From: Eubacteriales bacterium
Lineage (GTDB): Bacteria > Bacillota > Clostridia > Christensenellales > CAG-138
Direction of reading: 5' to 3'
Length of the DNA: 10,623 nucleotides
Assembly: GCA_030695285.1 (NCBI GenBank)
Contig: JAUYTF010000176.1
Coordinates: 1-10,623 of the forward strand
This document shows positions 1 through 10,623 of the stretch, one piece after another. The notes beneath the pieces were generated by a model, which searched no databases, was not told the DNA's origin, and worked only from the letters and a program-made list of their open reading frames with translations. The number at the start of each line of letters is the position of its first letter. Within the stretch, counting starts at the first letter, position 1. Both the position numbers and the translations under genes were made by a program.

Positions 1-909
1 GGCGTGCAGTTTCACGACGACGACGCGGTGCCGGATATGAACAACATGTCCGACAAGGCGATCATCGACTACGCCAAGGACGTCAAGGCCATGCTGGACA
101 AATACGGCCTGTTTGCGGAGTTTGTGGCGCCCCGGCTCTGGTTTGACGCGCGCTGCAACGACGGCGCGTATACCGCGAGCCTGAAGGAGAACTACGATTT
201 TGCCATCTGGCGCTCCAAGCGCAGCTGCGACATCGCAAAGGCGCTGGGCACCAACAAGATCCAGCTCTGGCTGGCGCGCGAAGGCACGCTCTGCGCCGAG
301 GGCAAGAACCCGGTGGAGAAGATTTTGCAGCTGCGGGACGCGATGAATACAATTCTCGAGTACGATCGTGACGCGCTGATTCTTGTGGAACCCAAGCCCA
401 ACGAGCCGATTGATCGCAGCTATTGCGGCACCGTCGGGCACGCGCTGGGTCTTGGCGCATATACCGTTGACCCAAGCCGCGTTGGCGTATGCATCGAGAG
501 CGCACATTCGATCCTTGCGGGTCTCGACCCCGCCAACGACATGGCGTACGCCATCGCACTGGGCAAACTCTGGGGCGTGCACCTCAACGACCAGAACGGC
601 ATGAAGTACGATCAGGACAAGGCGTTCGGCGTGGACAACCTCAGGCAGGCGTTCAATCAGGTCAAGGTGCTCTATGAGAATAACTTCGGCGACAACGGCA
701 AGATGGAATGCGTCGGCCTCGACGTCAAAGCCATGCGCTCCCAGCCCGCCGAGGACTGCTACGCGCACATCGTGAAGTCAAAGAGAATCTTCGAGCTGCT
801 GCTGGAGAAGGTCAAGCGTTTTGACTACAAGTTCCAGGCAGAGTGCGTAAGAGAGCAGAACTTCGAGAAACTCGAAATGTATGTCATGGAGCTATTGATG
901 CTCGGCTAA
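1..909 (+). CDS. Xylose-isomerase-like TIM-barrel sugar isomerase, 5' end cut off
   Basis: Probable aldose-ketose isomerase of the Streptomyces-type (class I) xylose isomerase family. The frame is open from base 1 (Gly-Val-Gln-Phe-His-Asp-Asp-Asp), so the GTG at 4 is not a real start; about 50 N-terminal residues lie outside the window. Numbering from the first codon, the fragment keeps the His/Asp pair at H5 and D8, W90 in the pocket, E130 and K132 in EPKPNEP, the E166-x2-H169 metal site, D204 and D206 in KYDQD, and D241. Spacing fits the family closely. The metal ligand equivalent to Asp245 is His194 (VHLND), and the Thr-Asn-Leu-Phe pocket segment is replaced around residues 43-47. The class is therefore clear but the substrate may not be xylose. 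It precedes a sugar kinase on the same strand and probably supplies it with a ketose. Confidence 0.85.
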   Translation, partial: GVQFHDDDAVPDMNNMSDKAIIDYAKDVKAMLDKYGLFAEFVAPRLWFDARCNDGAYTASLKENYDFAIWRSKRSCDIAKALGTNKIQLWLAREGTLCAEGKNPVEKILQLRDAMNTILEYDRDALILVEPKPNEPIDRSYCGTVGHALGLGAYTVDPSRVGVCIESAHSILAGLDPANDMAYAIALGKLWGVHLNDQNGMKYDQDKAFGVDNLRQAFNQVKVLYENNFGDNGKMECVGLDVKAMRSQPAEDCYAHIVKSKRIFELLLEKVKRFDYKFQAECVREQNFEKLEMYVMELLMLG

Positions 910-910
910 C

Positions 911-925
911 TCGAATAGTATTCGA
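911..925. repeat. Perfect inverted repeat, 6-bp arms, possible operator
   Basis: The arms TCGAAT and ATTCGA flank a 3-base spacer, two bases after the isomerase stop codon. The right arm overlaps the -35 of a candidate promoter, which would suit a repressor site. A second dyad of the same shape (TTCGAG-AAA-CTCGAA, 862-876) lies 35 bases upstream inside the isomerase gene. A short dyad like this can occur by chance, so the operator role is a guess. Confidence 0.3.
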
Positions 926-950
926 CAAAATCGTTGATCTGGCGTACTAT
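922..950 (+). promoter_or_regulatory. Candidate sigma-A promoter for the kinase operon
   Basis: TCGACA (922-927, five of six to TTGACA) is followed after 17 bases by TACTAT (945-950, four of six to TATAAT). It would start transcription near 957, giving an 80-base leader before the kinase. The -10 is mediocre and read-through from the isomerase gene is an alternative. Confidence 0.35.
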
Positions 951-982
951 TTCATTGGAAGATCAATAGAAGAAACCATAGC

Positions 983-1020
983 CGGACGGGCGCGTGTTTG
1001 GAAAAGACGCGCGTCCGTTT
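983..1020 (+). terminator. GC-rich hairpin before the kinase gene
   Basis: CGGACG plus CGCGT (983-988 and 991-995, with a GG bulge) pair with ACGCG and CGTCCG (1007-1017). The loop is about 11 bases and only three T follow. It sits between the candidate promoter and the kinase Shine-Dalgarno site. It may partly terminate the isomerase transcript, act as an attenuator or stabilise the downstream mRNA. The short T-run makes a full terminator unlikely. Confidence 0.35.
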
Positions 1021-1040
1021 GGTATACTGGAGGCGGCAAT

Positions 1041-2048
1041 ATGAACCAAAACGGCATCGCAGTTGCGGGCAATATGATTGTAGACGTGCTCTATCCCATC
1101 CTCGGGCATCCGAAGCCGGGGGAGCTCACGACCATTACGGAAGGAGTCTCGCGTTCATCCGGCGGCGCGCTGTGCAACGTGATCGTCGATCTGGCAAAGC
1201 TCGATCCCGATCTGCCGCTCACCGCGCTGGGTCGCGTCGGCACCGACCCCGAGGGGGATTATGTGCTCGACAAACTGCGCGCGCACGACAACATAGACAC
1301 TTCCCGCGTGCTGCGCGAGGGGCTGACGTCGTTTACGGCGGTCATGGCGGACACCATCGGGAAGCAGCGCACGTTTTACCACTACCGCGGCGCGAACGCC
1401 CGCTTTTGTGAAAGCGACATCGATTGGGACAATCTCAAGGCGGACATCCTGCACATCGGATACATACTTTTGCTGGACGCACTGGACGAGCCGGATGATG
1501 CATTCGGCACCAAGATGGCAAGGCTGCTGCACACGGCGCAGCAGCGGGGGATATTGACCTCCATCGACGTGGTCAGCGAAACGGGCGATCGATTCGGGCG
1601 GATCGTCCCGCCTGCGCTCAAGTATACGGACTACTGCGTGATCAACGAGCTGGAGGCCGAGGCCTCGACGGGCGTGCTCCTGCGCGGCGAGAACAATGCG
1701 CTTTTGCGCGAAAACCTGCCCGCCGCGCTGAACCGGCTCAAGGCGCTGGGCGTCTCGCGCTGGGCGGTGATCCACGCGCCGGAAGGCGCATACGGCGTGG
1801 ACGAACACGGCAACTATCTTGAAACCGACAGTGCGCCGCTGCCGCGCGCGATGATCAAGGGCACGGTCGGTGCGGGGGACGCGTTCTGCTCCGGCGTGCT
1901 GTATGGCGCTTATCGCAATCTGCCGCTCGTCGAGGCGCTGGAGATGGGCAACGCTGCTGCTGCCTGCTCGCTCACGGAAAGCGGCGCGACAGAGGGTATG
2001 CGAAGGGCGGACGATGCTTTGATGCTTTGTCGGGAACTGCGAAAATGA
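1041..2048 (+). CDS. PfkB-family carbohydrate kinase
   Basis: ATP-dependent sugar kinase of the ribokinase/PfkB family, 335 residues, cytosolic. Visible motifs are the N-terminal GNMIVDV strand, the GG-x3-N sugar-binding segment (41-46), GRVGTDPEGD (64-73), NELEAE (202-207) and the C-terminal GAGDAF signature (277-282), with D280 as the likely catalytic base. The Asp that normally starts the DTxGAGD motif is Gly274 here. The frame is open upstream to 843, but the start is set at 1041 because GGAGG (1029-1033) lies seven bases before this ATG and homology begins here. It ends in an ATGA overlap with the next gene. Placed between an isomerase and a ketose-1-phosphate reductase homologue, it most likely makes a ketose 1-phosphate; the substrate cannot be read from sequence. 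Confidence 0.9.
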   Translation: MNQNGIAVAGNMIVDVLYPILGHPKPGELTTITEGVSRSSGGALCNVIVDLAKLDPDLPLTALGRVGTDPEGDYVLDKLRAHDNIDTSRVLREGLTSFTAVMADTIGKQRTFYHYRGANARFCESDIDWDNLKADILHIGYILLLDALDEPDDAFGTKMARLLHTAQQRGILTSIDVVSETGDRFGRIVPPALKYTDYCVINELEAEASTGVLLRGENNALLRENLPAALNRLKALGVSRWAVIHAPEGAYGVDEHGNYLETDSAPLPRAMIKGTVGAGDAFCSGVLYGAYRNLPLVEALEMGNAAAACSLTESGATEGMRRADDALMLCRELRK

Positions 2049-2914
2049 AGACGCAGATACGAAACTATAAGCACTTTGGTGAATGTCTCTGGCTTGAAAA
2101 CGGGATGTGGGAACTGGGAATTCCGACCTCGTTTGGCCCGCGTGTGCTGTATTTTGCTCAAAAAGGGCTGGAGAATGTTTTCTACGAGCAGCCGGCAGAC
2201 GCGGACTATCTTTGCACGCCGGAGGGCTGGCGCATATATGGCGGAACACGGTTGTGGCTCGCACCGGAAAGCGCGCATGCGCTCTACGCACCGGAACAAA
2301 ACCCGGTGTCTACGCAATGGCACGACGACACACTGGTCGTGACGCAGGTGGAAGACAAAAATCTTCACGTGATGAAGCAGATTGAAATTTCCGAGGGGGA
2401 AGATCCACTGAGCGTGGACATCGTCTATCGGATCACGAACACGGGGAAGCAAACACTCACCGGTGCGCCGTGGGCGGTGAGTGTCATGCGCGCGGGTGGT
2501 GTGCTAACGGTTCCGTTTGAAGCGAAAACCCGAGAGATTACGGCAAAGCCGGATCGGATTTTGTCGCTCTGGAATACGACTTCGCTGAACGATCCGCGGC
2601 TGAGCTTCACAAATAGCGCGGTGGAGATTGCGCAGAGGACGCAGGATGATTACTTTAAAGTTGGGCTCTGTTGCGCGGCGGGTACGGCGAGTTATGCACT
2701 AGAGGATCAAATATTGACGAAGACATTTCCGGTGAATCAAAACTCCGTGTATCCGGACGGGGGCGTGAATCTGGAAGTCTACGCGTGCCGCTGGATGCTT
2801 GAGTTTGAAACACTCGCGCCGCTTGGAACGATTCTACCCGACGAGTCGGTGGAGCATGCCGAGCGATGGACGATTTGTAGCAGGGAAGGCGAGGGCGTAA
2901 TTCATGCAGTTTAA
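2045..2914 (+). CDS. Galactose-mutarotase-like (aldose-epimerase-fold) protein of unknown function
   Basis: A 289-residue protein that looks like a member of the galactose-mutarotase-like beta-sandwich superfamily. The most telling segment is GGTRLWLAPE with a following YAPEQNPV (roughly residues 66-90), recalling the GGHRLW-type motif of uncharacterised sugar-binding relatives of aldose 1-epimerase. No signal peptide or membrane segment is present, so it should be cytosolic. Its ATG overlaps the kinase stop (ATGA), implying translational coupling; an in-frame TTG at 2027 is less attractive. The gene ends 11 bases inside the next one. In this operon it may speed anomer interconversion of the sugar or sugar phosphate, or only bind it. 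The catalytic His/Glu set of true mutarotases could not be assigned, so no reaction is claimed. Confidence 0.65.
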   Translation: MKTQIRNYKHFGECLWLENGMWELGIPTSFGPRVLYFAQKGLENVFYEQPADADYLCTPEGWRIYGGTRLWLAPESAHALYAPEQNPVSTQWHDDTLVVTQVEDKNLHVMKQIEISEGEDPLSVDIVYRITNTGKQTLTGAPWAVSVMRAGGVLTVPFEAKTREITAKPDRILSLWNTTSLNDPRLSFTNSAVEIAQRTQDDYFKVGLCCAAGTASYALEDQILTKTFPVNQNSVYPDGGVNLEVYACRWMLEFETLAPLGTILPDESVEHAERWTICSREGEGVIHAV

Positions 2915-4127
2915 AACGATACATGCGGTGATGTATGGCGCGGGAAATATCGGGCGCGGGTTCATCGGCATGCTGTTTGCCCAGAGCGGATATCGCATTA
3001 CGTTTATCGACGTGGCAAAGCCGCTCGTAGACGCGCTGCACACGAAAAAAAGCTATCCTGTGCGCGTGCTCGACGGGGACACGCACGAGGATATTCTGGT
3101 GGAGCACGTGGATGCCATCGACGGCACGGATTCGGAAGCGGTTGCGCAGGCGATTGCGGGCGCGGACGTCATGGCAACGGCGGTGGGCGCGAACATCCTC
3201 AAGTTCATTGCGCCAAACATCGCGGCGGGACTGAAGCTGCGCTACGCAAAAGGCGGAAAACCGCTGAACACCATCATCTGCGAGAATCTGATCGATGCAA
3301 ATATTGTGCTCAAAGAACTGATTCTAGCGCACCTGAATGAGGAAGAACAGGTCTGGTTTGCCGAGAATGTCGGGCTTGTGGAGGCGTCTATCGGGCGCAT
3401 GGTGCCCGTGCAGACGCCCGAGATGCAGGACGGCGATCCGCTTCGCGTCTGCGTGGAGCGCTACGGCTACCTGCCAGTGGACCGGGACGCGTTTCGCGGC
3501 GAGCTGCCGCAGATAAGAAACATGGTGCCGTTCTCTCCGTTTGATTTCTACATCCGCAGAAAGCTGTATGTGCATAACTTAGGCCACGCAACCACGGCGT
3601 ATCTGGGGCTGTATACGGGCAGAGAATTCATCTACGAATCCATCGACGACGCGGACGCCTATGCCATCGCGCTCAACGCGATGCTTGAGAGCGCGGAGGC
3701 GTTGTCGATCAAATACGGCGTTTCTCTTGCGGATATCCTGCGACACATTCAGGATTTGCTGATGCGCTTTACCAATCGCGCGCTCAAGGACACCTGCGCG
3801 CGGGTCGGCGCGGATCTCGTGCGGAAACTTGCCCCGCAGGATCGGTTGATCGGAGCCGCGCAACTCTGCCGAGAGCAGGGGATCGTGCCGGCGTATATTT
3901 GCGTTGGCGCGGCGGGGGCGGTCTATGCATATCAAAAAGAAAACGGACGGGAACAGACGCAAGAGAACGCCAAAGAAGCGCTTGCGGCGCTTTCCGGGCT
4001 GACGGACGGGAGTGTACACGCGCTGATCCTGCGCTATTACGCTCTCTTTGCCGCGGGGGCATCCCTCGCCGAGATTCGCCGCATGGCACAGCGGCTCAAA
4101 TCCGCAAATAGTCACGACGTGGTGTGA
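2904..4127 (+). CDS. mtlD: Mannitol-1-phosphate 5-dehydrogenase-like polyol-phosphate dehydrogenase
   Basis: NAD-linked oxidoreductase of the polyol-specific long-chain dehydrogenase family, 407 residues (MtlD of E. coli has 382). The Rossmann GAGNIGRGFIG lies at 12-22, with D36 ending strand 2, which favours NAD over NADP. The catalytic signature K220-x4-N225-x2-H228 sits in KLYVHNLGHATTAYLG, close to the MtlD counterpart. Family members oxidise mannitol 1-phosphate at C5 to fructose 6-phosphate. The start at 2904 overlaps the upstream gene by 11 bases and leaves a normal first strand before the GAG motif; ATG 2932 would remove it. There is no mannitol PTS gene nearby and the next gene is SorE-like, so the substrate may be glucitol 6-phosphate or another hexitol phosphate. 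The gene symbol denotes the closest family, not proven specificity. Confidence 0.85.
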   Translation: MQFKTIHAVMYGAGNIGRGFIGMLFAQSGYRITFIDVAKPLVDALHTKKSYPVRVLDGDTHEDILVEHVDAIDGTDSEAVAQAIAGADVMATAVGANILKFIAPNIAAGLKLRYAKGGKPLNTIICENLIDANIVLKELILAHLNEEEQVWFAENVGLVEASIGRMVPVQTPEMQDGDPLRVCVERYGYLPVDRDAFRGELPQIRNMVPFSPFDFYIRRKLYVHNLGHATTAYLGLYTGREFIYESIDDADAYAIALNAMLESAEALSIKYGVSLADILRHIQDLLMRFTNRALKDTCARVGADLVRKLAPQDRLIGAAQLCREQGIVPAYICVGAAGAVYAYQKENGREQTQENAKEALAALSGLTDGSVHALILRYYALFAAGASLAEIRRMAQRLKSANSHDVV

Positions 4128-4139
4128 GGAGAAACAACA

Positions 4140-5426
4140 ATGAAAACAACTGCTGTGCGCCTCTATGGCGCAATGGATTTACGAATGGAGACGTTTGAGT
4201 TGCCGGAGATCGGCCACGACGGCGTCCGCGTCGAGGTGGTCTCCGACAGCATCTGCATGTCCAGCTACAAGGCGGCGGTGCAGGGAACGGCGCACAAGCG
4301 CGTGCCAAAGGACGCAGCGGAACACCCCGTGATCATCGGGCACGAGTTCTGTGGCAAGATCATCGAGGTCGGCAAAAACTGGCAAGCAAAATATCGCGCG
4401 GGAGAGCACGTGGCAATCCAACCGGCGCATTTTTATCAAGGCTCGTTACTTGCGCCGGGCTATTCCTACCAATTCTGCGGCGGGGCTGCAACGGTGGTCA
4501 ATATCCCCATCGAAATCCTCAAGATGGATTGTCTGCTGCCCTATGCGAGCGATACATTCTTCTACGGCTCGCTGGCGGAACCCATGAGTTGCATCATTGG
4601 AACATTCCATGGCATGTATCACACCTCGCTGGGCAGCTATGAGCATCGCATGGGCATCGTTGAGGGCGGCAAGCTCGCGTTGCTTGCGTCGGTAGGGCCC
4701 ATGGGACTCGGTGCGATTGACTACGCGCTGCATGGTGAACGCAAGCCGGGATTGCTCGTGGTGACGGATATCGACGATCAAAGGCTCGCGCGCGCAAAGA
4801 GCATCTATACCGTAGAGCACGCAAAATCGCTCGGTGTCGAGCTTGTGTACGTCAACACAGCGAAACTTGAAGACCCAGTAGCTGCGCTCAAAGCGTTGAC
4901 GGGTGGCACAGGCTTTGACGATGCAATCTGCTTTGCGCCAGTCAAGCCGGTGGTTGAGCAGGCGGACAGTATCCTCGGCTTTGACGGCTGCCTGAGCTTC
5001 TTTGCGGGGCCGACCAACACCGCGTTCAAGGCCGAAGTGAATTTTTACGACGTACACTATTCGTCACACCACATTCTCGGTACAACCGGCGGCAACACAG
5101 ACGACATGCGCGAGGCGATTTCGCTCATGACCGCGGGCAAGATCAACCCCGCCGCGATGATCACGCACATCGGCGGCCACAACAGCGCGGCAGAAACCAC
5201 GCTGAACCTGCCGAACATCCCCGGCGGCAAGAAGCTGATCTATACGCATCTTGACATGCCACTGACCGCGATTGCGGATTTTGCGGAGCGCGGCAAGACC
5301 GAACCGATGTTTGCGGAGCTCGACCGCATTGTGAAAGGCTATAACGGCCTATGGTGCGGCGAGGCGGAAGCGTTTTTATTGCAGTTTGCGAAGAGAATTG
5401 ATAGAACAAGATCACAGGAGAAATAG
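4140..5426 (+). CDS. sorE: SorE-like zinc-dependent L-sorbose-1-phosphate reductase
   Basis: Medium-chain zinc dehydrogenase, 428 residues, most like SorE, which reduces L-sorbose 1-phosphate to D-glucitol 6-phosphate in sorbose-using bacteria. Hallmarks are CMSSYKAAVQGTAHKRVP (39-56), PVIIGHEFCG (63-72), YASDTFFYGSLAEPMSC (135-151) and KLALLASVGPMGLGAIDYALHG in the Rossmann domain (from 178). Probable catalytic zinc ligands are C39, H68 and E147, with E69 nearby. The four-cysteine structural-zinc lobe of classic alcohol dehydrogenases is absent from about 90-130. AGGAG (4127-4131) overlaps the upstream stop and lies eight bases before the ATG. The protein is basic and lysine/arginine-rich at the very end, where the coding tail carries the next gene's Shine-Dalgarno site. 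It should feed hexitol phosphate to the preceding dehydrogenase. Recognition rests on memory of the family. Confidence 0.8.
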   Translation: MKTTAVRLYGAMDLRMETFELPEIGHDGVRVEVVSDSICMSSYKAAVQGTAHKRVPKDAAEHPVIIGHEFCGKIIEVGKNWQAKYRAGEHVAIQPAHFYQGSLLAPGYSYQFCGGAATVVNIPIEILKMDCLLPYASDTFFYGSLAEPMSCIIGTFHGMYHTSLGSYEHRMGIVEGGKLALLASVGPMGLGAIDYALHGERKPGLLVVTDIDDQRLARAKSIYTVEHAKSLGVELVYVNTAKLEDPVAALKALTGGTGFDDAICFAPVKPVVEQADSILGFDGCLSFFAGPTNTAFKAEVNFYDVHYSSHHILGTTGGNTDDMREAISLMTAGKINPAAMITHIGGHNSAAETTLNLPNIPGGKKLIYTHLDMPLTAIADFAERGKTEPMFAELDRIVKGYNGLWCGEAEAFLLQFAKRIDRTRSQEK

Positions 5427-5430
5427 AAAT

Positions 5431-6777
5431 ATGAATGCATATATCGAGCGCGTATTACGCGAGATTCAAAAGAAGAACGCAAACGAACCGGAGTTTTTGC
5501 AGACGGTGGAGGAAGTGTATACATCTCTCGAGCCGATCGTGAGCAAGCATCCGGAATATGAGAAGCTCTCGCTGCTAGAGCGCATGTCCGAGCCGGAGCG
5601 CGCGATTTCGTTTCGCGTGACTTGGGTGGACGACGCGGGAAGAGTGCATGCAAACCGTGGCTACCGCGTGCAGTTCAACGGCGCGATCGGCCCGTTTAAG
5701 GGCGGACTAAGGTTCCATCCGTCGGTCAATCTGTCCATCATGAAGTTCTTAGGCTTTGAGCAGACGTTTAAAAACAGCCTGACCAGCCTGCCCATCGGCG
5801 GCGGCAAGGGCGGCAGCGACTTTGACCCGCGCGGTAAGAGCGACGGCGAAGTCATGCGCTTTTGCCAGGCGTTTATGACAGAGCTCTACCGCCACATAGG
5901 GCCCGATATCGACGTGCCCGCGGGCGACATCGGTGTGGGTGCGCGCGAGATCGGCTATCTTTACGGGCAGTATCGCAGGATCCGTGGCGCGTTTGAAAAC
6001 GGCGTGCTCACGGGCAAGGGCATGAGCTACGGCGGCAGCCTGATTCGCCCGGAAGCGACGGGGTTCGGCGCGGTGTACTACGTCAACGAAGTATTCAAGC
6101 ACGAGGGCGACAAGATGGAGGGCAAAACCTTCGCGCTCAGCGGCTTTGGCAATGTCTCATGGGGCGTGGCAAAGAAGCTCGAAGAGCTGGGAGCCATGGC
6201 AATCACACTCTCCGGCCCGGACGGCTACATCTACGATCCCAAGGGCGTGACGGGCAAGAAGATCGATTATCTGGTCGAAATGCGCAACAGCGGCAGAGAC
6301 AAGGTGAAGGACTATGCCGATCGCTACGGCTGCGCGTTTTATCCCGGCGAAAAGCCGTGGGGTGTGCAGGCAGATGTCTACATGCCGTGCGCCACGCAAA
6401 ACGACGTGAACATCAACAGCGTAAAGAAGATTGCAGCCTCCGGTTCGAAGTACTACATCGAGGTCGCGAATATGCCGACCACCAACGATGCGCTGGCGTT
6501 CTTGCTGGAGCAAAAGCATATGATCGTGGCGCCCAGCAAGGCGGTCAACGCAGGCGGCGTTGCCACCAGCGCCTTGGAGATGAGCCAGAACAGCATGCGC
6601 TATAGCTGGAGCGCGGAAGAGGTCGACGAAAAGCTGCACACCATCATGAAAAACATCCACGACAACTCGGCAAAGGCCGCCGAGGCGAACGGGCTAGGCT
6701 ACAATCTCGTCGCGGGCGCGAACATCGCAGGATTTGCCAAAGTCGCGGATGCGATGATTGCGCAGGGGATTATTTGA
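5431..6777 (+). CDS. gdhA: Glutamate dehydrogenase, hexameric, probably NAD-specific
   Basis: Catalyses reversible oxidative deamination of glutamate to 2-oxoglutarate and ammonia; 448 residues, the normal size of the bacterial hexameric enzyme. Substrate-site residues are present: K90 (GPFKGG), K114, catalytic K126 (GGGKGG) and D166 (PAGDIGVG). RPEATGFG (206-213) leads into the nucleotide domain with GFGN (238-241). F239 and the SGPDG turn (261-265) match the positions that go with NAD use in Clostridium symbiosum GDH (Phe238, Ser260, Pro262), and the two proteins appear similar throughout. The start is ATG 5431, not the in-frame codon at 5386, because AGGAG (5416-5420) precedes it and the N-terminus then matches the family. 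Only four bases separate it from the sorE-like stop, so it is the last gene of the sugar operon, before a strong hairpin. Confidence 0.96.
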   Translation: MNAYIERVLREIQKKNANEPEFLQTVEEVYTSLEPIVSKHPEYEKLSLLERMSEPERAISFRVTWVDDAGRVHANRGYRVQFNGAIGPFKGGLRFHPSVNLSIMKFLGFEQTFKNSLTSLPIGGGKGGSDFDPRGKSDGEVMRFCQAFMTELYRHIGPDIDVPAGDIGVGAREIGYLYGQYRRIRGAFENGVLTGKGMSYGGSLIRPEATGFGAVYYVNEVFKHEGDKMEGKTFALSGFGNVSWGVAKKLEELGAMAITLSGPDGYIYDPKGVTGKKIDYLVEMRNSGRDKVKDYADRYGCAFYPGEKPWGVQADVYMPCATQNDVNINSVKKIAASGSKYYIEVANMPTTNDALAFLLEQKHMIVAPSKAVNAGGVATSALEMSQNSMRYSWSAEEVDEKLHTIMKNIHDNSAKAAEANGLGYNLVAGANIAGFAKVADAMIAQGII

Positions 6778-7037: not shown

Positions 7038-7066
7038 TTGCGACACTTCCGTTGCTTTGATATAAT
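7038..7066 (+). promoter_or_regulatory. Sigma-A promoter of the UbiA-family gene
   Basis: TTGCGA (7038-7043, four of six) and a perfect TATAAT (7061-7066) are 17 bases apart, and TG at 7058-7059 gives an extended -10. Transcription would begin near 7073, leaving a leader of about 20 bases, so the upstream hairpins are not part of this mRNA. Confidence 0.75.
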
Positions 7067-7092
7067 CTACTAAATCATTATGGCAGGTGCGT

Positions 7093-8064
7093 ATGAAAAT
7101 CAAAGCTTTTTTTAAACTGGTTGAAATGCAAACCAAAGTTGCAAGCGTAATCCCGTACACAACCGCGCTGCTCTACGTTCTATACAGCACAAAGCGGATA
7201 AACGCGGTCAACATGGTGGTCATGTTTTTTTCGATGCTGATTTTTGACATGACGGTCACCGCGCTGAACAACTATTTTGACTACAAGAGAGCAGAAAAAA
7301 AGCACGGTTACAATTATGAGATTCATAATTCGATCGTGCAGTATCAACTGAAGATTTCTACGGTCAGAGCGGTGATCATCGTCATGATCGTCTTCTCCGC
7401 CGCGCTGGGACTCCTGCTGGTTTATTTGACAAACATCGTTACGCTGATTCTGGGCGCCGCGTGCTTCGCTATCGGAATCGTGTACTCCTATGGCCCTATG
7501 CCGATATCACGCACGCCTTTTGGCGAGATTTTTTCTGGCCTGACGATGGGGCTTGGCATTCCGTTTATCGCGTATTACATCAACGTGTTTGATCAAAATA
7601 TTCTGAACGTTTCGCTTGCGAATCACATTTTTTTACTTTCGTTTGATGTATACCAGATCGCAGGTATTCTTCTGGTGTCGCTGCCGGCCGTCTTTGGCAT
7701 AGCCAATATCATGCTTGCCAACAACATCTGCGATATGGAGGACGATTTGCTGAACAAGCGGTACACGCTCCCCATCGTGATCGGCAAACAAAAAGCCATG
7801 ACGCTTTTAAAACTCCTGTTTGCGCTGGCATATGTCGCCATCATAATCGCGCTCGCGCTTGGTGTGCTGCCGCTGTATTCGCTGCTAACGCTCATCACGA
7901 TCATTCCGCTGATGAAGAATCTCAGACTCTTTGCGGCGAACCCGACGAAGAAAGACACCTTCGGCGCAATCGTCGGCAGCTTTGTTATGATCACGGTTTC
8001 GCTAATTATCACGATCGGGCTGGGAATCCTCGATTCGGCATTTCTGCAGCTGCTGGTATCATAG
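7093..8064 (+). CDS. UbiA-family polyprenyltransferase, MenA/DmkA-like
   Basis: Integral membrane prenyltransferase of the UbiA superfamily, 323 residues with about eight to nine hydrophobic segments. Family members such as MenA attach a polyprenyl chain to 1,4-dihydroxy-2-naphthoate, giving demethylmenaquinone. The first Asp-rich motif is NNYFDYKRAE (59-68); it keeps N59 and D63 but has Asn60 and Ala67 where Asp is usual. The second motif is intact: NNICDMEDD (210-218) with D214 and D218, followed by NKRYTLPIVIG, as in MenA. The start is uncertain between GTG 7087 and ATG 7093; the ATG was chosen because AGGTG (7085-7089) could serve as a ribosome site, although the spacing is short. It converges on the apbE-like gene with 13 bases between the stops. 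It may make a quinone dedicated to the flavin-linked system next door; a different aromatic acceptor is possible. Confidence 0.85.
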   Translation: MKIKAFFKLVEMQTKVASVIPYTTALLYVLYSTKRINAVNMVVMFFSMLIFDMTVTALNNYFDYKRAEKKHGYNYEIHNSIVQYQLKISTVRAVIIVMIVFSAALGLLLVYLTNIVTLILGAACFAIGIVYSYGPMPISRTPFGEIFSGLTMGLGIPFIAYYINVFDQNILNVSLANHIFLLSFDVYQIAGILLVSLPAVFGIANIMLANNICDMEDDLLNKRYTLPIVIGKQKAMTLLKLLFALAYVAIIIALALGVLPLYSLLTLITIIPLMKNLRLFAANPTKKDTFGAIVGSFVMITVSLIITIGLGILDSAFLQLLVS

Positions 8065-8077
8065 CGCGGGCGGATCG

Positions 8078-9133
8078 CTAATTCTTCAGATCGGTTGGCC
8101 GGTCTGTGATCGTATAGTTTTGAATCAGATCCTCCTGCGCATCAAATCGTCCGTGAAGACCCGAGGTGAAATAAATATAGTGATCCTTGGTGATGAAAAT
8201 CGCTTCTACGCCCTCGAGCGATTCGATCAGTTGGATTCCTTTCTGCACGCCCAACAACAGCACAGAGGTGGACAGTCCGTCGGCGGTTTGTGAGTTCGCC
8301 GTCACGATCGTCACCTGCTTGATGTTGGTCTGAGCGGGAAATCCGGTCTTGGGGTTGAGGATATGATGGTAGATGTTCCCTTCATATTCAAAATACCGTT
8401 CGTAATCGCCGGAAGACACGACGGACTCGTCTTCGATCTGGAGGCTCAGCAGATACACACCGCGCGGGCTGTCAGGGTCCTGAATCCCGATGACGAAGCT
8501 GCTGCCATCCGGTTTTAAACCGACGGCAAGAACGTTTCCGCCAAGGTTGATCAATGCGCTCGTTACGCCCCTGCTCAGCAAATAGGCCTTCATCTCGTCC
8601 GCTATGGTTCCTTTCGCGATTGCGCCGAGGCTGATGGCCATATCTTTGTCCTGAAGCGCGATTTGGTCGTCGCCCAGGAAGGCGATTTTTTGATAATCGA
8701 TCAAGGGTAGCACTGCGCCCAGCTCTTCTTTTGACGGATAGTGCCCGTCCGGCGGGTCAATCGCCCACAAATCGATCAACGGACCGGCGGTGACGTCAAA
8801 CAGCCCGCTTGTCAAGCGGCTGAAATAGAGGGAGTCATGGAGCACGCGGTAGGTCACATCGCTGACATTCACGGGCTGCATGCCGGCGTTTTTGTTGAGG
8901 TTGTCGATATCGCTCCCTGCAACGTGCTTACTTAGCAGGTTTTCGAGGGATTTGATCCGGTCGAAAGAATCCTGAATCAAACTGTCGCGACCCATATTGG
9001 GATACGCATAGATCTTAAGCTCGATGAGCGTGTCCAACGCAAAGGTGTGTCCGGTGAGTATCTTCTGTTCGCCGGAACAGGAAGCCAATAACAAACCCAG
9101 TATGAGAACTGGAAGCAAGAATATTTTTCGCAT
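8078..9133 (-). CDS. apbE: FAD:protein FMN transferase (ApbE), lipoprotein
   Basis: Splits FAD and links FMN covalently to Thr or Ser of target proteins outside the membrane; 351 residues. The N-terminus is a lipoprotein signal with lipobox LASC, so C19 should be lipidated and the enzyme should face the outside. Family motifs in order are SGLFDVTAGPLIDLW (109-123), SLGAIAKGTIAD (168-179), INLGGN (195-200), SSGDYERYF (240-248), YHHILNPKTG (255-264) and TADGLSTS (283-290), with D285 and T289 at the usual magnesium site. The start ATG is preceded by AAAGGA (minus strand, 9141-9146) at good spacing. It lies 61 bases after a response-regulator gene on the same strand and is probably cotranscribed with it. 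The candidate FMN acceptor is the repeat protein encoded at 10023-10623. Similar enzymes serve Rnf, Nqr and PplA-type electron transfer. Confidence 0.94.
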   Translation of the reverse strand: MRKIFLLPVLILGLLLASCSGEQKILTGHTFALDTLIELKIYAYPNMGRDSLIQDSFDRIKSLENLLSKHVAGSDIDNLNKNAGMQPVNVSDVTYRVLHDSLYFSRLTSGLFDVTAGPLIDLWAIDPPDGHYPSKEELGAVLPLIDYQKIAFLGDDQIALQDKDMAISLGAIAKGTIADEMKAYLLSRGVTSALINLGGNVLAVGLKPDGSSFVIGIQDPDSPRGVYLLSLQIEDESVVSSGDYERYFEYEGNIYHHILNPKTGFPAQTNIKQVTIVTANSQTADGLSTSVLLLGVQKGIQLIESLEGVEAIFITKDHYIYFTSGLHGRFDAQEDLIQNYTITDRPTDLKN

Positions 9134-9194
9134 GGATGTGTCCTTTTGATTTTTTAGTATTTATCGAAACGCTTGTGCGAACACAGAGGAATCG

Positions 9195-9881
9195 TCAAGC
9201 ATCCGGCTGCTTTTCTATATAGTAATATCTCTTTTGCGGGCGCCCGACCTCACCATATTCCAGTTCAGTTTTCAAAACGCCGTTTTCGCGCATGCGCTCT
9301 AAATACTTGCGGACGGTGATGCGGGACAACCCTGTCTCATTGGCGATATCTGCCGCCGTAAAGCCATCTTTTTTCTCAGAAACGACGCTTTTGATAAAAT
9401 AAAAGGTCTCGTTGCAGATGCCTTTTCCCTTGTCGTCATTCGGAGCGATGAAGACGTTTTGCGCGATGCACTGATCGATTTCTTCCTGAGTCATGGTCTG
9501 ATATTGCAGCAGGCACTCGCGCTTGGAGACGGACCGCATTGCGGCTTCACTGAAGCGCTTGCAGGAGCTAGGTTTAATGAGATAGTCGGAGACGCCATAA
9601 CTAAACGCCTCTGAAATATACTCGACACGGTTCTCCTCTGACATCATGATCACGCAGACGAAGATTTTCTCGGCGCGAATTTGTTTCAGCAGACGCATAT
9701 TCTCTTCTATGGACGGGCCTAAATCCAGTATGACGATGCCATAGGAATACTTCTTTAGTTTTACGATCGCCTGTTCAGCGGTCGATGCGCTGGCGACAGA
9801 AGAAAAGAGATTCAGCTCTCGGAGAAACTGAATTTTCTCATCTGCGGATGCTTCTATATCACATACGACCAGACATTTCAT
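9195..9881 (-). CDS. Response regulator, CitB/DcuR type
   Basis: DNA-binding two-component response regulator, 228 residues. The receiver domain (about 1-120) has the phospho-acceptor D53 in VILDLG, S81 as the switch Ser/Thr, K103 in LIKPSS, and D8 in the acidic pocket; the usual second acidic residue beside D8 is Cys7. The C-terminal half has a helix-turn-helix at about 174-200 (FTAADIANETGLSRITVRKY) and then the YGEVGRPQKRYYY segment (209-221) typical of CitB, DcuR and DctR. Such regulators often answer di- and tricarboxylate sensors. No sensor kinase is in the window. ATG 9881 was chosen over ATG 9908, because the latter falls at the predicted transcription start and lacks a ribosome site. 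It likely controls apbE and neighbouring electron-transfer genes; that is inference from position. Confidence 0.9.
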   Translation of the reverse strand: MKCLVVCDIEASADEKIQFLRELNLFSSVASASTAEQAIVKLKKYSYGIVILDLGPSIEENMRLLKQIRAEKIFVCVIMMSEENRVEYISEAFSYGVSDYLIKPSSCKRFSEAAMRSVSKRECLLQYQTMTQEEIDQCIAQNVFIAPNDDKGKGICNETFYFIKSVVSEKKDGFTAADIANETGLSRITVRKYLERMRENGVLKTELEYGEVGRPQKRYYYIEKQPDA

Positions 9882-9887
9882 GAGCAA

Positions 9888-9892
9888 CCCCC
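9888..9892 (-). promoter_or_regulatory. Ribosome binding site that fixes the regulator start
   Basis: GGGGG on the minus strand, six bases before ATG 9881. Together with the promoter just upstream it rules against the longer reading from 9908. Confidence 0.6.
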
Positions 9893-9915
9893 GCACGATA
9901 CGTTCCATTGATTAC

Positions 9916-9943
9916 ATTATATACGTCAGAAGTACCAATGCAA
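9916..9943 (-). promoter_or_regulatory. Sigma-A promoter of the response regulator-apbE pair
   Basis: On the minus strand a perfect TATAAT (9921-9916) lies 16 bases downstream of TTGCAT (9943-9938, weak -35). The predicted transcription start is near 9909, giving a 27-base leader. The weak -35 would suit control by an activator. Confidence 0.65.
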
Positions 9944-9967
9944 CAGTTTCTAAATAGCGCAGAACGA

Positions 9968-9999
9968 AGGAAGGCATAGCCGCTAAGCCATGCCTTCCT
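9968..9999 (-). terminator. Terminator of the repeat-protein gene
   Basis: A perfect 10-bp stem AGGAAGGCAT/ATGCCTTCCT (9968-9977 and 9990-9999), extendable by two pairs past an A-C mismatch, lies 23 bases after the stop of the minus-strand gene. On that strand the stem runs into TTCGTTCTG, a broken T-rich tract. It separates this gene from the regulator promoter. Confidence 0.7.
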
Positions 10000-10022
10000 G
10001 ATAAGCGTTGCTGCGTCAGTGG

Positions 10023-10623
10023 TTATTTGCCGAACGCTGCATTGAAGAGCTGATAGAAGCCGATCGCGTGGACGGAAACACCGGACACACCGTCGGGATA
10101 CCCTTCGGCATCGACGGCGAAGATCGACTGATTCTCAAGCACGTAGGTCTCAAGAAGCTGCGCCTGCTGATACCATTCCAGCGTGCTGCCCGCAGCAGTC
10201 ATGCCATACGCTTCCTTCAGCTGATCTTTCGACAGGGCGGTGGCCTTGTCGCCGTCAACCAGGAAGTACTTGGCGTTGGAATCTTCCCCCTCCGCCACGT
10301 ATTCTTTGGTGTAGAGCGCGTCAAAGTTGACCGCGACGATCGTTCCGTTCGCTACGATGAACTCGGCCAGCTCTTTCCAGCCGTTCTCGGACGGTTCGCC
10401 CATGGCGGTCACAACAGGGGTGCTGCCATAGCTGCCGGCCGGAATCGGCTCGGAAGCAAGCGCTTTTTCCACAAGCATGAAGAAATCGTTTACATGGATC
10501 GATACGCTGGCGCCGCTGTCCGTCGTCAGCGCGTTGGTGCGGCCTTCATCGTCGCTGTAGAGGCTCTCAAACTTTTTGGGATCCTGGTTCTTGACCAGCC
10601 AGGCTTCGGCGGCTAACGCCTGC
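10023..10623 (-). CDS. Tandem-repeat, PplA/FMN-bind-like surface protein, 5' end cut off
   Basis: C-terminal 199 residues of a larger minus-strand gene that stays open to the window edge; ATG 10478 is internal. The fragment carries the end of one repeat and a whole second one. The ends align without gaps: D35-x5-S41-I-H43-x3-F47-F48 and D177-x5-S183-V-H185-x3-F189-Y190, with AEAWLVKNQ (5-13) matching LETYVLENQ (157-165). The second repeat has a GWKELAEFIVANGTIVAVNFDALY stretch (81-104), similar in pattern to the beta-strands of FMN-binding lipoproteins of the PplA/COG4939 group. DGVSGVS (177-183) looks like the Dxx(S/T)GA(T/S) flavin attachment motif with Ser as acceptor. The closeness of an apbE gene supports covalent FMN. 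A signal peptide cannot be checked because the N-terminus is missing. Family placement is by pattern only and could be wrong. Confidence 0.6.
   Translation of the reverse strand, partial: QALAAEAWLVKNQDPKKFESLYSDDEGRTNALTTDSGASVSIHVNDFFMLVEKALASEPIPAGSYGSTPVVTAMGEPSENGWKELAEFIVANGTIVAVNFDALYTKEYVAEGEDSNAKYFLVDGDKATALSKDQLKEAYGMTAAGSTLEWYQQAQLLETYVLENQSIFAVDAEGYPDGVSGVSVHAIGFYQLFNAAFGK

What the first reader, a model, noticed from the sequence alone, without database searches (positions are those of the whole stretch)
7038..10623. Possible variant flavin-based extracellular electron transfer (EET) locus
Seen: a MenA-like prenyltransferase, a lipoprotein ApbE, a response regulator and a repeat protein with FMN-attachment-like motifs within 3.6 kb. 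Known: the Listeria-type EET locus pairs a dedicated demethylmenaquinone prenyltransferase (DmkA), an ApbE (FmnA) and a doubly flavinylated lipoprotein (PplA). Inferred: this window holds a rearranged version with its own CitB-type regulator. No Ndh2 or EetA/B homologue is visible, so the locus must continue past 10623 or use another membrane module such as Rnf.
Basis: partly seen in the sequence, partly recalled or inferred. Interest (0 to 1): 0.75.

Follow-up and report, generated by a model that had tools for sequence, protein, structure and literature searches.

The report
Flavin-based electron-export gene cluster
This stretch is the cut-off half of a gene cluster that probably lets a bacterium related to Christensenella push surplus electrons out of the cell through flavins, a variant of a system known from Listeria and lactic acid bacteria that has its own switch gene and seems to depend on a quinone building block made by other microbes.

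Summary
The finding holds up. The window is a whole contig of a fragmented Christensenella-type MAG and ends inside the EET locus. In the window's own genome DmkB opens another contig (83% identical to a relative's), so Ndh2-EetA-EetB most likely lie in a ~3.6 kb assembly gap; they were not seen there directly. The ApbE corresponds to Listeria FmnB (not FmnA) and keeps its catalytic residues. The lipoprotein has no Pfam FMN_bind hit and fails NCBIfam's PplA cut-off, but its confident model has two FMN-bind-like domains, each with an invariant serine (S135, S277) at the flavinylation position in a non-textbook V-S-[VI]-H setting. The CitB/DcuR-type regulator is found in 3 of 3 locus carriers and 0 of 8 other genomes tested, with no kinase in the locus. 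MenD (over cut-off), MenB and MqnC were not found in the carriers, so the dedicated DmkA probably works on imported DHNA. Best reading: a new variant of the known FLEET system, rare in its order. EET activity is untested.

The parts
7093..8064 (+). dmkA: MenA/UbiA-type DHNA polyprenyltransferase (GTG at 7087 also possible)
   Evidence: NF004752 328 bits over cut-off 289; 80-81% identical to the gene in the same place in G002 and G003; start by comparison with relatives
8078..9133 (-). fmnB-type apbE: lipoprotein FAD:protein FMN transferase
   Evidence: Pfam ApbE 276 bits; best PDB hit 7esa = Listeria FmnB, 250 bits against 155 for the next; S257/H273/D301 plus E261/R262 all kept
9195..9881 (-). 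CitB/DcuR-type response regulator (ORF open to 9908)
   Evidence: Response_reg and HTH hits, DcuR 105 bits and DpiA 79 bits; orthologues only in the 3 locus carriers among 11 genomes
10023..10622 (-). PplA-like lipoprotein with two FMN-bind-like domains, residues 95-293 of 293; the first 94 residues lie beyond the contig end
   Evidence: P0001; model of the full protein pLDDT 91; matches 2KZX and 3O6U
10500..10502 (-). codon of Ser135, proposed FMN attachment site of domain 1
   Evidence: invariant in 48 of 48 aligned rows, 47 of them distinct; coordinates
10074..10076 (-). codon of Ser277, proposed FMN attachment site of domain 2
   Evidence: 47 of 48 aligned rows, the exception being gapped there; coordinates

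Best explanation
The window holds one half of a FLEET-type locus (flavin-based extracellular electron transfer) in a Christensenella-type bacterium, cut by the contig end. Proposed working: DmkB makes a polyprenyl chain and DmkA joins it to DHNA to give demethylmenaquinone in the membrane; Ndh2 moves electrons from NADH to that quinone (or to a free naphthoquinone); EetB with an ECF module elsewhere in the genome exports FAD; the lipoprotein ApbE (FmnB type) puts FMN on Ser135 and Ser277 of the two-domain lipoprotein; this passes electrons to acceptors outside the cell such as ferric iron. A CitB/DcuR-type regulator in the pplA-RR-apbE gene run tunes the locus. Since no MenD over cut-off, MenB or MqnC was found in the carriers, DHNA is probably taken from neighbours, as in Lactiplantibacillus plantarum. 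Shown: gene content and order (complete in two relatives), conservation, folds, catalytic residues. Inferred: electron path, flavinylation, regulation, DHNA import, and the presence of Ndh2-EetA-EetB in this very genome.
For: Four genes confirmed by profiles. Full eight-gene locus in two same-genus genomes, G003 (L013) and G002 (L016). DmkB at the very start of own contig C330, 83% identical, with a predicted gap of 3.60-3.65 kb between C292 and C330. ApbE nearest to FmnB, catalytic residues kept. Lipoprotein model = two FMN-bind-like domains with invariant serines. Same Ndh2-EetA-EetB-DmkB | PplA-like-ApbE arrangement in Alkalibaculum and Alkalibacter (L024, L026). MenD over cut-off in 0 of 8 genomes, MenB match in 0 of 3, MqnC match in 0 of 3.
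Against: Ndh2 and a locus-type EetB were not found in the window's own genome; that is read as an assembly gap. The lipoprotein scores only 15.1 bits against the NCBIfam PplA model (cut-off 325) and nothing against Pfam FMN_bind. No FmnA (ECF-T) gene lies among the eight genes from dmkA to dmkB in G003. The strict [S/T]GA[S/T] motif occurs at the proposed domain 2 site in 0 of 47 rows with letters (V replaces A in 46, and S/T before G is kept in only 13), and S/T-G precedes the domain 1 site in only 5 of 48. The FmnB-like score is not exclusive: another ApbE of this genome (C391) also has FmnB as best hit, at 174 bits. No activity data.
Confidence: 0.82

Rival explanations
1. The ApbE and flavinylated lipoprotein serve another flavinylation system of the cell, such as Rnf, and stand beside a quinone prenyltransferase by chance.
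For: The genome has two further ApbE genes, one of them next to its own EetA/EetB-type pair on C276, and three FMN_bind hits elsewhere.
Against: Those two ApbE genes lie on other contigs and score lower against FmnB (128 and 174 bits; 250 for the window's). DmkA, ApbE, PplA-like, Ndh2, EetA, EetB and DmkB stay together in two same-genus genomes and, without this DmkA, in Alkalibaculum and Alkalibacter.
Confidence: 0.08
2. The locus is a demethylmenaquinone chain that feeds a dedicated extracytosolic reductase (for example a fumarate reductase-like enzyme) rather than iron or other outside acceptors.
For: Listeria FmnB also flavinylates an extracytosolic fumarate reductase encoded outside its cluster (PMC9973259, passages).
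Against: No such reductase lies among the genes from dmkA to dmkB in G003; a two-domain flavoprotein lipoprotein is the likely electron outlet there. Reductases elsewhere in the genome were not searched.
Confidence: 0.15
3. The window is a decaying fragment: the missing Ndh2-EetA-EetB are really deleted in this genome.
For: No Ndh2 orthologue and no locus-type EetB in a 94% complete assembly.
Against: Both breaks are contig ends; the DmkB match starts at base 5 of C330 in the right orientation; the four window genes are under purifying selection; a protein cluster that includes the window's lipoprotein is recorded on a 25.8 kb contig, though that contig could not be read.
Confidence: 0.05

Closest known systems
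FLEET locus of Listeria monocytogenes and Lactiplantibacillus plantarum (Ndh2, PplA, FmnA/FmnB, DmkA/DmkB, EetA/EetB)
   Same: Same enzyme set: Ndh2, ApbE/FmnB, DmkA, DmkB, EetA, EetB and a two-domain flavoprotein-like lipoprotein, seen complete in two relatives
   Different: PplA replaced by a distant two-domain lipoprotein family; no FmnA in the locus; divergent pplA-RR-apbE / ndh2-eetA-eetB-dmkB halves with dmkA convergent; own CitB-type regulator; no DHNA pathway found by the markers tested (the last shared with L. plantarum, PMC8837199 passages)
Alkalibaculum sporogenes and Alkalibacter mobilis loci (L024, L026; partial in Eubacteriaceae UBA12179, L025)
   Same: Divergent Ndh2-EetA-EetB-DmkB against PplA-like-ApbE; lipoprotein 41-48% and Ndh2 56-58% identical
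   Different: No response regulator next to the locus in the fetched stretches; Alkalibaculum has a UbiA/MqnP-like prenyltransferase beside DmkB
FMN-bind1 domain protein CPE2226 (PDB 3O6U) and A3DHT5 (PDB 2KZX)
   Different: Single-domain structures with a GAT motif at the aligned place; here two domains with V-S-[VI]-H

Membership tests
FLEET locus | ApbE-like FMN transferase (FmnB) | tested here: met
   Best PDB hit FmnB 7esa, catalytic residues kept
FLEET locus | Dedicated DHNA prenyltransferase DmkA | tested here: met
   NF004752 328 bits, cut-off 289
FLEET locus | Polyprenyl synthase DmkB in the locus | tested here: met
   In the locus in G003 and G002; at the start of C330 in the own genome
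FLEET locus | Type II NADH dehydrogenase Ndh2 | tested here: inconclusive
   Present in G002 and G003; not found in the own genome, where a contig gap falls at its place
FLEET locus | EetA and EetB | tested here: inconclusive
   PF07009 and PF07456 hits in G003, EetA 75% identical and EetB in G002; own genome has only another EetB copy, on C276. EetB = PF07456 from PMC9973259; EetA = NusG_II is recalled
FLEET locus | FmnA (ECF-T subunit) in the locus | tested here: not met
   The eight genes from dmkA to dmkB in G003 are all accounted for without it; ECF-T genes elsewhere in the genome were not searched
PplA (NCBIfam NF041941) | Score over the curated cut-off of 325 bits | tested here: not met
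   15.1 bits (P0001); 15.9 for the G003 protein
PplA (NCBIfam NF041941) | Lipoprotein with two FMN attachment sites | tested here: inconclusive
   Signal and lipobox-like start read by eye in P0001; two FMN-bind-like domains with invariant S135 and S277; flavinylation itself not testable
Pfam FMN_bind (PF04205) | Profile match over cut-off | tested here: not met
   No hit at E<=10, although the fold matches the FMN-bind1 structure 3O6U
CitB/DcuR-type response regulators | Receiver domain plus DpiA-like HTH | tested here: inconclusive
   Response_reg 47 bits over cut-off and HTH_11 over cut-off, but HTH_64 (DpiA-like) 26.1 bits just under its 27; DcuR and DpiA best NCBIfam hits, below their equivalog cut-offs; precomputed domains of most close homologues include PF20714

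The most novel reading that the evidence does not exclude
A laterally spread FLEET module in quinone-auxotrophic Christensenella-type bacteria: electron export depends on DHNA made by neighbours, is carried by a new two-domain PplA replacement whose FMN sites sit in a V-Ser-[VI]-His loop (with an insertion in domain 1), and is switched by an orphan CitB-type regulator that travels with the locus and may sense the shared quinone, the acceptor or an organic acid.
Probability: 0.4. Interest if true: 0.6.

Novelty: new variant of a known kind. Interest (0 to 1): 0.48.

Why it matters
It extends flavin-based EET to Christensenella-type bacteria (recalled to be anaerobic fermenters of guts and sediments), for which none of the listed rows shows such a locus, and gives a testable case of electron export that depends on a shared metabolite. 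It also defines a PplA replacement family that Pfam FMN_bind and NCBIfam PplA both miss in the members scanned, so EET surveys that rely on those profiles would undercount, and it points to a dedicated regulator for EET.
Full report
What the window is. The window is the whole of contig C292 in a 2.54 Mb, 515-contig assembly, 93.8% complete. The left two thirds encode sugar or polyol catabolism and a glutamate dehydrogenase. The locus in question begins at about 7090.

The four genes. The first is a UbiA/MenA protein over the cut-off of an NCBIfam DHNA polyprenyltransferase model (328 bits, cut-off 289). Convergent with it is a lipoprotein ApbE. Its best solved relative is 7esa at 250 bits, the next scoring 155; 7ESA belongs to the Listeria FmnB structures (PMC8906456, passages). 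FmnB's triad S257, H273, D301 and its E261 and R262 (same passages) are all kept in the window's protein. The two other ApbE proteins of this genome score 128 and 174 bits against FmnB, which is still the best hit of the second. Last is the repeat protein, cut to 199 residues by the contig end. All four show dN/dS of about 0.08-0.21 between the window and G002 or G003, with dS 0.76-1.83.

Flavinylation sites. ApbE modifies a [S/T]GA[S/T]-like motif (PMC11334425, passage); Listeria PplA carries FMN on T143 and T265 (PMC8906456, passage). Here domain 2 has [AST]-G-[VA]-S-[VI]-H in 47 of 47 rows with letters; S or T precedes G in 13 of them, A precedes the serine in 1, and none is the strict motif. 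Domain 1 keeps S135 in 48 of 48 and the histidine two residues on in 47 of 48, but has an insertion before it in 43 of 48 and S/T-G in only 5 of 48; a strict motif ending two residues earlier, at S133, is present in 21 of 48, the window's protein included. I therefore propose S135 and S277 as the sites, with S133 as an alternative in this species. This is inference; no flavinylation was measured.

The rest of the locus. In G003 the order is dmkA> <apbE <RR <pplA-like | Ndh2> NusG_II> Hpre_diP_synt_I> polyprenyl synthase>. G002 has the same eight in the same order: dmkA, apbE and RR, the lipoprotein, Ndh2, EetA at 75% identity (my ORF list had missed it), EetB and DmkB. PF07456 is EetB, the FAD-export ECF-S subunit (PMC9973259, passages and section 11); the NusG_II protein as EetA is recalled. 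Ndh2 is a type II NADH dehydrogenase over its first ~395 residues with a long C-terminal extension. FmnA, the ECF-T subunit, is not in the cluster.

The window's own genome. Ndh2 was searched for and not found in it, and its only PF07456 gene is a different copy on C276. But a DmkB 83% identical to that of G003 starts at base 5 of contig C330. From the relatives, the stretch between the broken lipoprotein and the start of C330 should be 3.60-3.65 kb, just what Ndh2-EetA-EetB need. I take it that this stretch was lost in assembly; that is an inference.

Spread. The lipoprotein is in 3 of 8 same-genus genomes (own included) and in 5 of the 61 genomes, two of these five being weak hits. Ndh2 of this type is in 3 of 396 sampled genomes of the order at E<=1e-60, one of them (G082) only 38% identical, and not seen in G000 itself. 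One scan of GTDB-species contigs gave six loci in all, with the caveat that it used two peptide patterns. Outside the order they include Alkalibaculum, Alkalibacter and a Eubacteriaceae MAG: divergent Ndh2-EetA-EetB-DmkB against PplA-like-ApbE in the first two, the third being cut at the lipoprotein; none of the three has the regulator next to the locus. A Spirochaetales MAG has the lipoprotein without the other genes in the fetched stretch. A rare locus with relatives in other families suggests lateral spread; no tree was made.

The regulator. Orthologues score 374-510 bits in the three carriers; in the other 8 of 11 genomes tested nothing exceeds 31 bits. It sits between pplA-like and apbE in one run of minus-strand genes, with no kinase among the genes from dmkA to dmkB. 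A link to the locus is therefore strong; what it senses is unknown. Two text searches aimed at regulators of FLEET (8 of 8 and 10 of 13 rows listed) showed no title or abstract about one.

Quinone supply. No genome among 8 has MenD over the cut-off, 6 having weak hits; MenB and MqnC have no match in G000, G002, G003, while 7, 7 and 2 of the 14 control genomes pass the respective cut-offs. So a dedicated DHNA prenyltransferase stands in genomes without a known route to DHNA by the markers tested. L. plantarum likewise lacks a complete DHNA pathway and does EET with exogenous DHNA (PMC8837199 and PMC9888254, passages). The simplest reading is DHNA scavenging. MAG incompleteness (92-94%) is the main caveat, though three genomes agree.

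Verdict. The locus works like FLEET. It is not a strict member: the PplA model and the in-locus FmnA are tested and not met, and Ndh2/EetA/EetB are unseen in this genome. I file it as a new variant of a known kind. Among the rows listed (5 of 5; 15 of 95; 10 of 1,156) I saw no paper that describes a FLEET locus in Christensenella-type bacteria; most rows of the last two were not listed, so this is a weak statement. PMC11748539 (passages) mentions Christensenellaceae as a correlating taxon, and PMC8238504 (passages) reports multi-flavinylated RnfG in Christensenellales, a different system.

Noticed in passing
L018 (G000:C276) 1164-3379: A second EetA/EetB-type pair with its own ApbE in the window's genome, in other surroundings (next to a protein with ODP and flavodoxin domains); probably serves Rnf or another flavinylation system.
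   Followed up: partly
L011 (G000:C391) 1335-2988: A third ApbE, closer to FmnB (174 bits) than the C276 one, beside a fumarase and followed by a 215 aa ORF without a Pfam match; the FMN_bind match at 2774-2875 lies in another frame over its 3' part.
   Followed up: partly
L019 (G000:C200) 54-2900: FMN_bind match in a ~184 aa ORF after two ORFs that read like RnfC and RnfD (names by eye, not scanned).
   Followed up: no
L053 (G000:C330) 1014-3268: Downstream of DmkB in this genome lies a HisKA kinase with an OmpR-type regulator; other genes follow DmkB in G002 and G003; possible but unproven link to the locus.
   Followed up: partly
L024 4657-5517: Alkalibaculum has a UbiA-type prenyltransferase (TIGR01475 over cut-off; MqnP models below theirs) beside DmkB, which suggests that different FLEET loci use different naphthoquinones.
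   Followed up: partly
L067 (G082:C293) 1486-5373: A distant MenA-like, Ndh2, DmkB-like trio in another family of the order, the Ndh2 match with one in-frame stop, next to a lipoprotein ORF cut by the contig end.
   Followed up: partly
L023 9881-11868: In a Spirochaetales MAG a PplA-like two-domain protein stands without other matching EET genes in the fetched stretch, next to an MsrB/MsrA fusion; may be a solitary flavoprotein.
   Followed up: partly
L006 1-3290: In G047 an RnfB-like end is followed by EetA, EetB, a lipoprotein with distant PplA similarity (24%, E 7e-5) and an ApbE: an Rnf-linked version with its own lipoprotein.
   Followed up: partly
window 1-6777: Polyol or inositol-type catabolic cluster (TIM-barrel isomerase, PfkB kinase, mutarotase, mannitol-1-phosphate dehydrogenase type, Zn-dehydrogenase) followed by glutamate dehydrogenase; gdhA also lies near the locus in G002 (94% identical), with PTS genes between.
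   Followed up: partly
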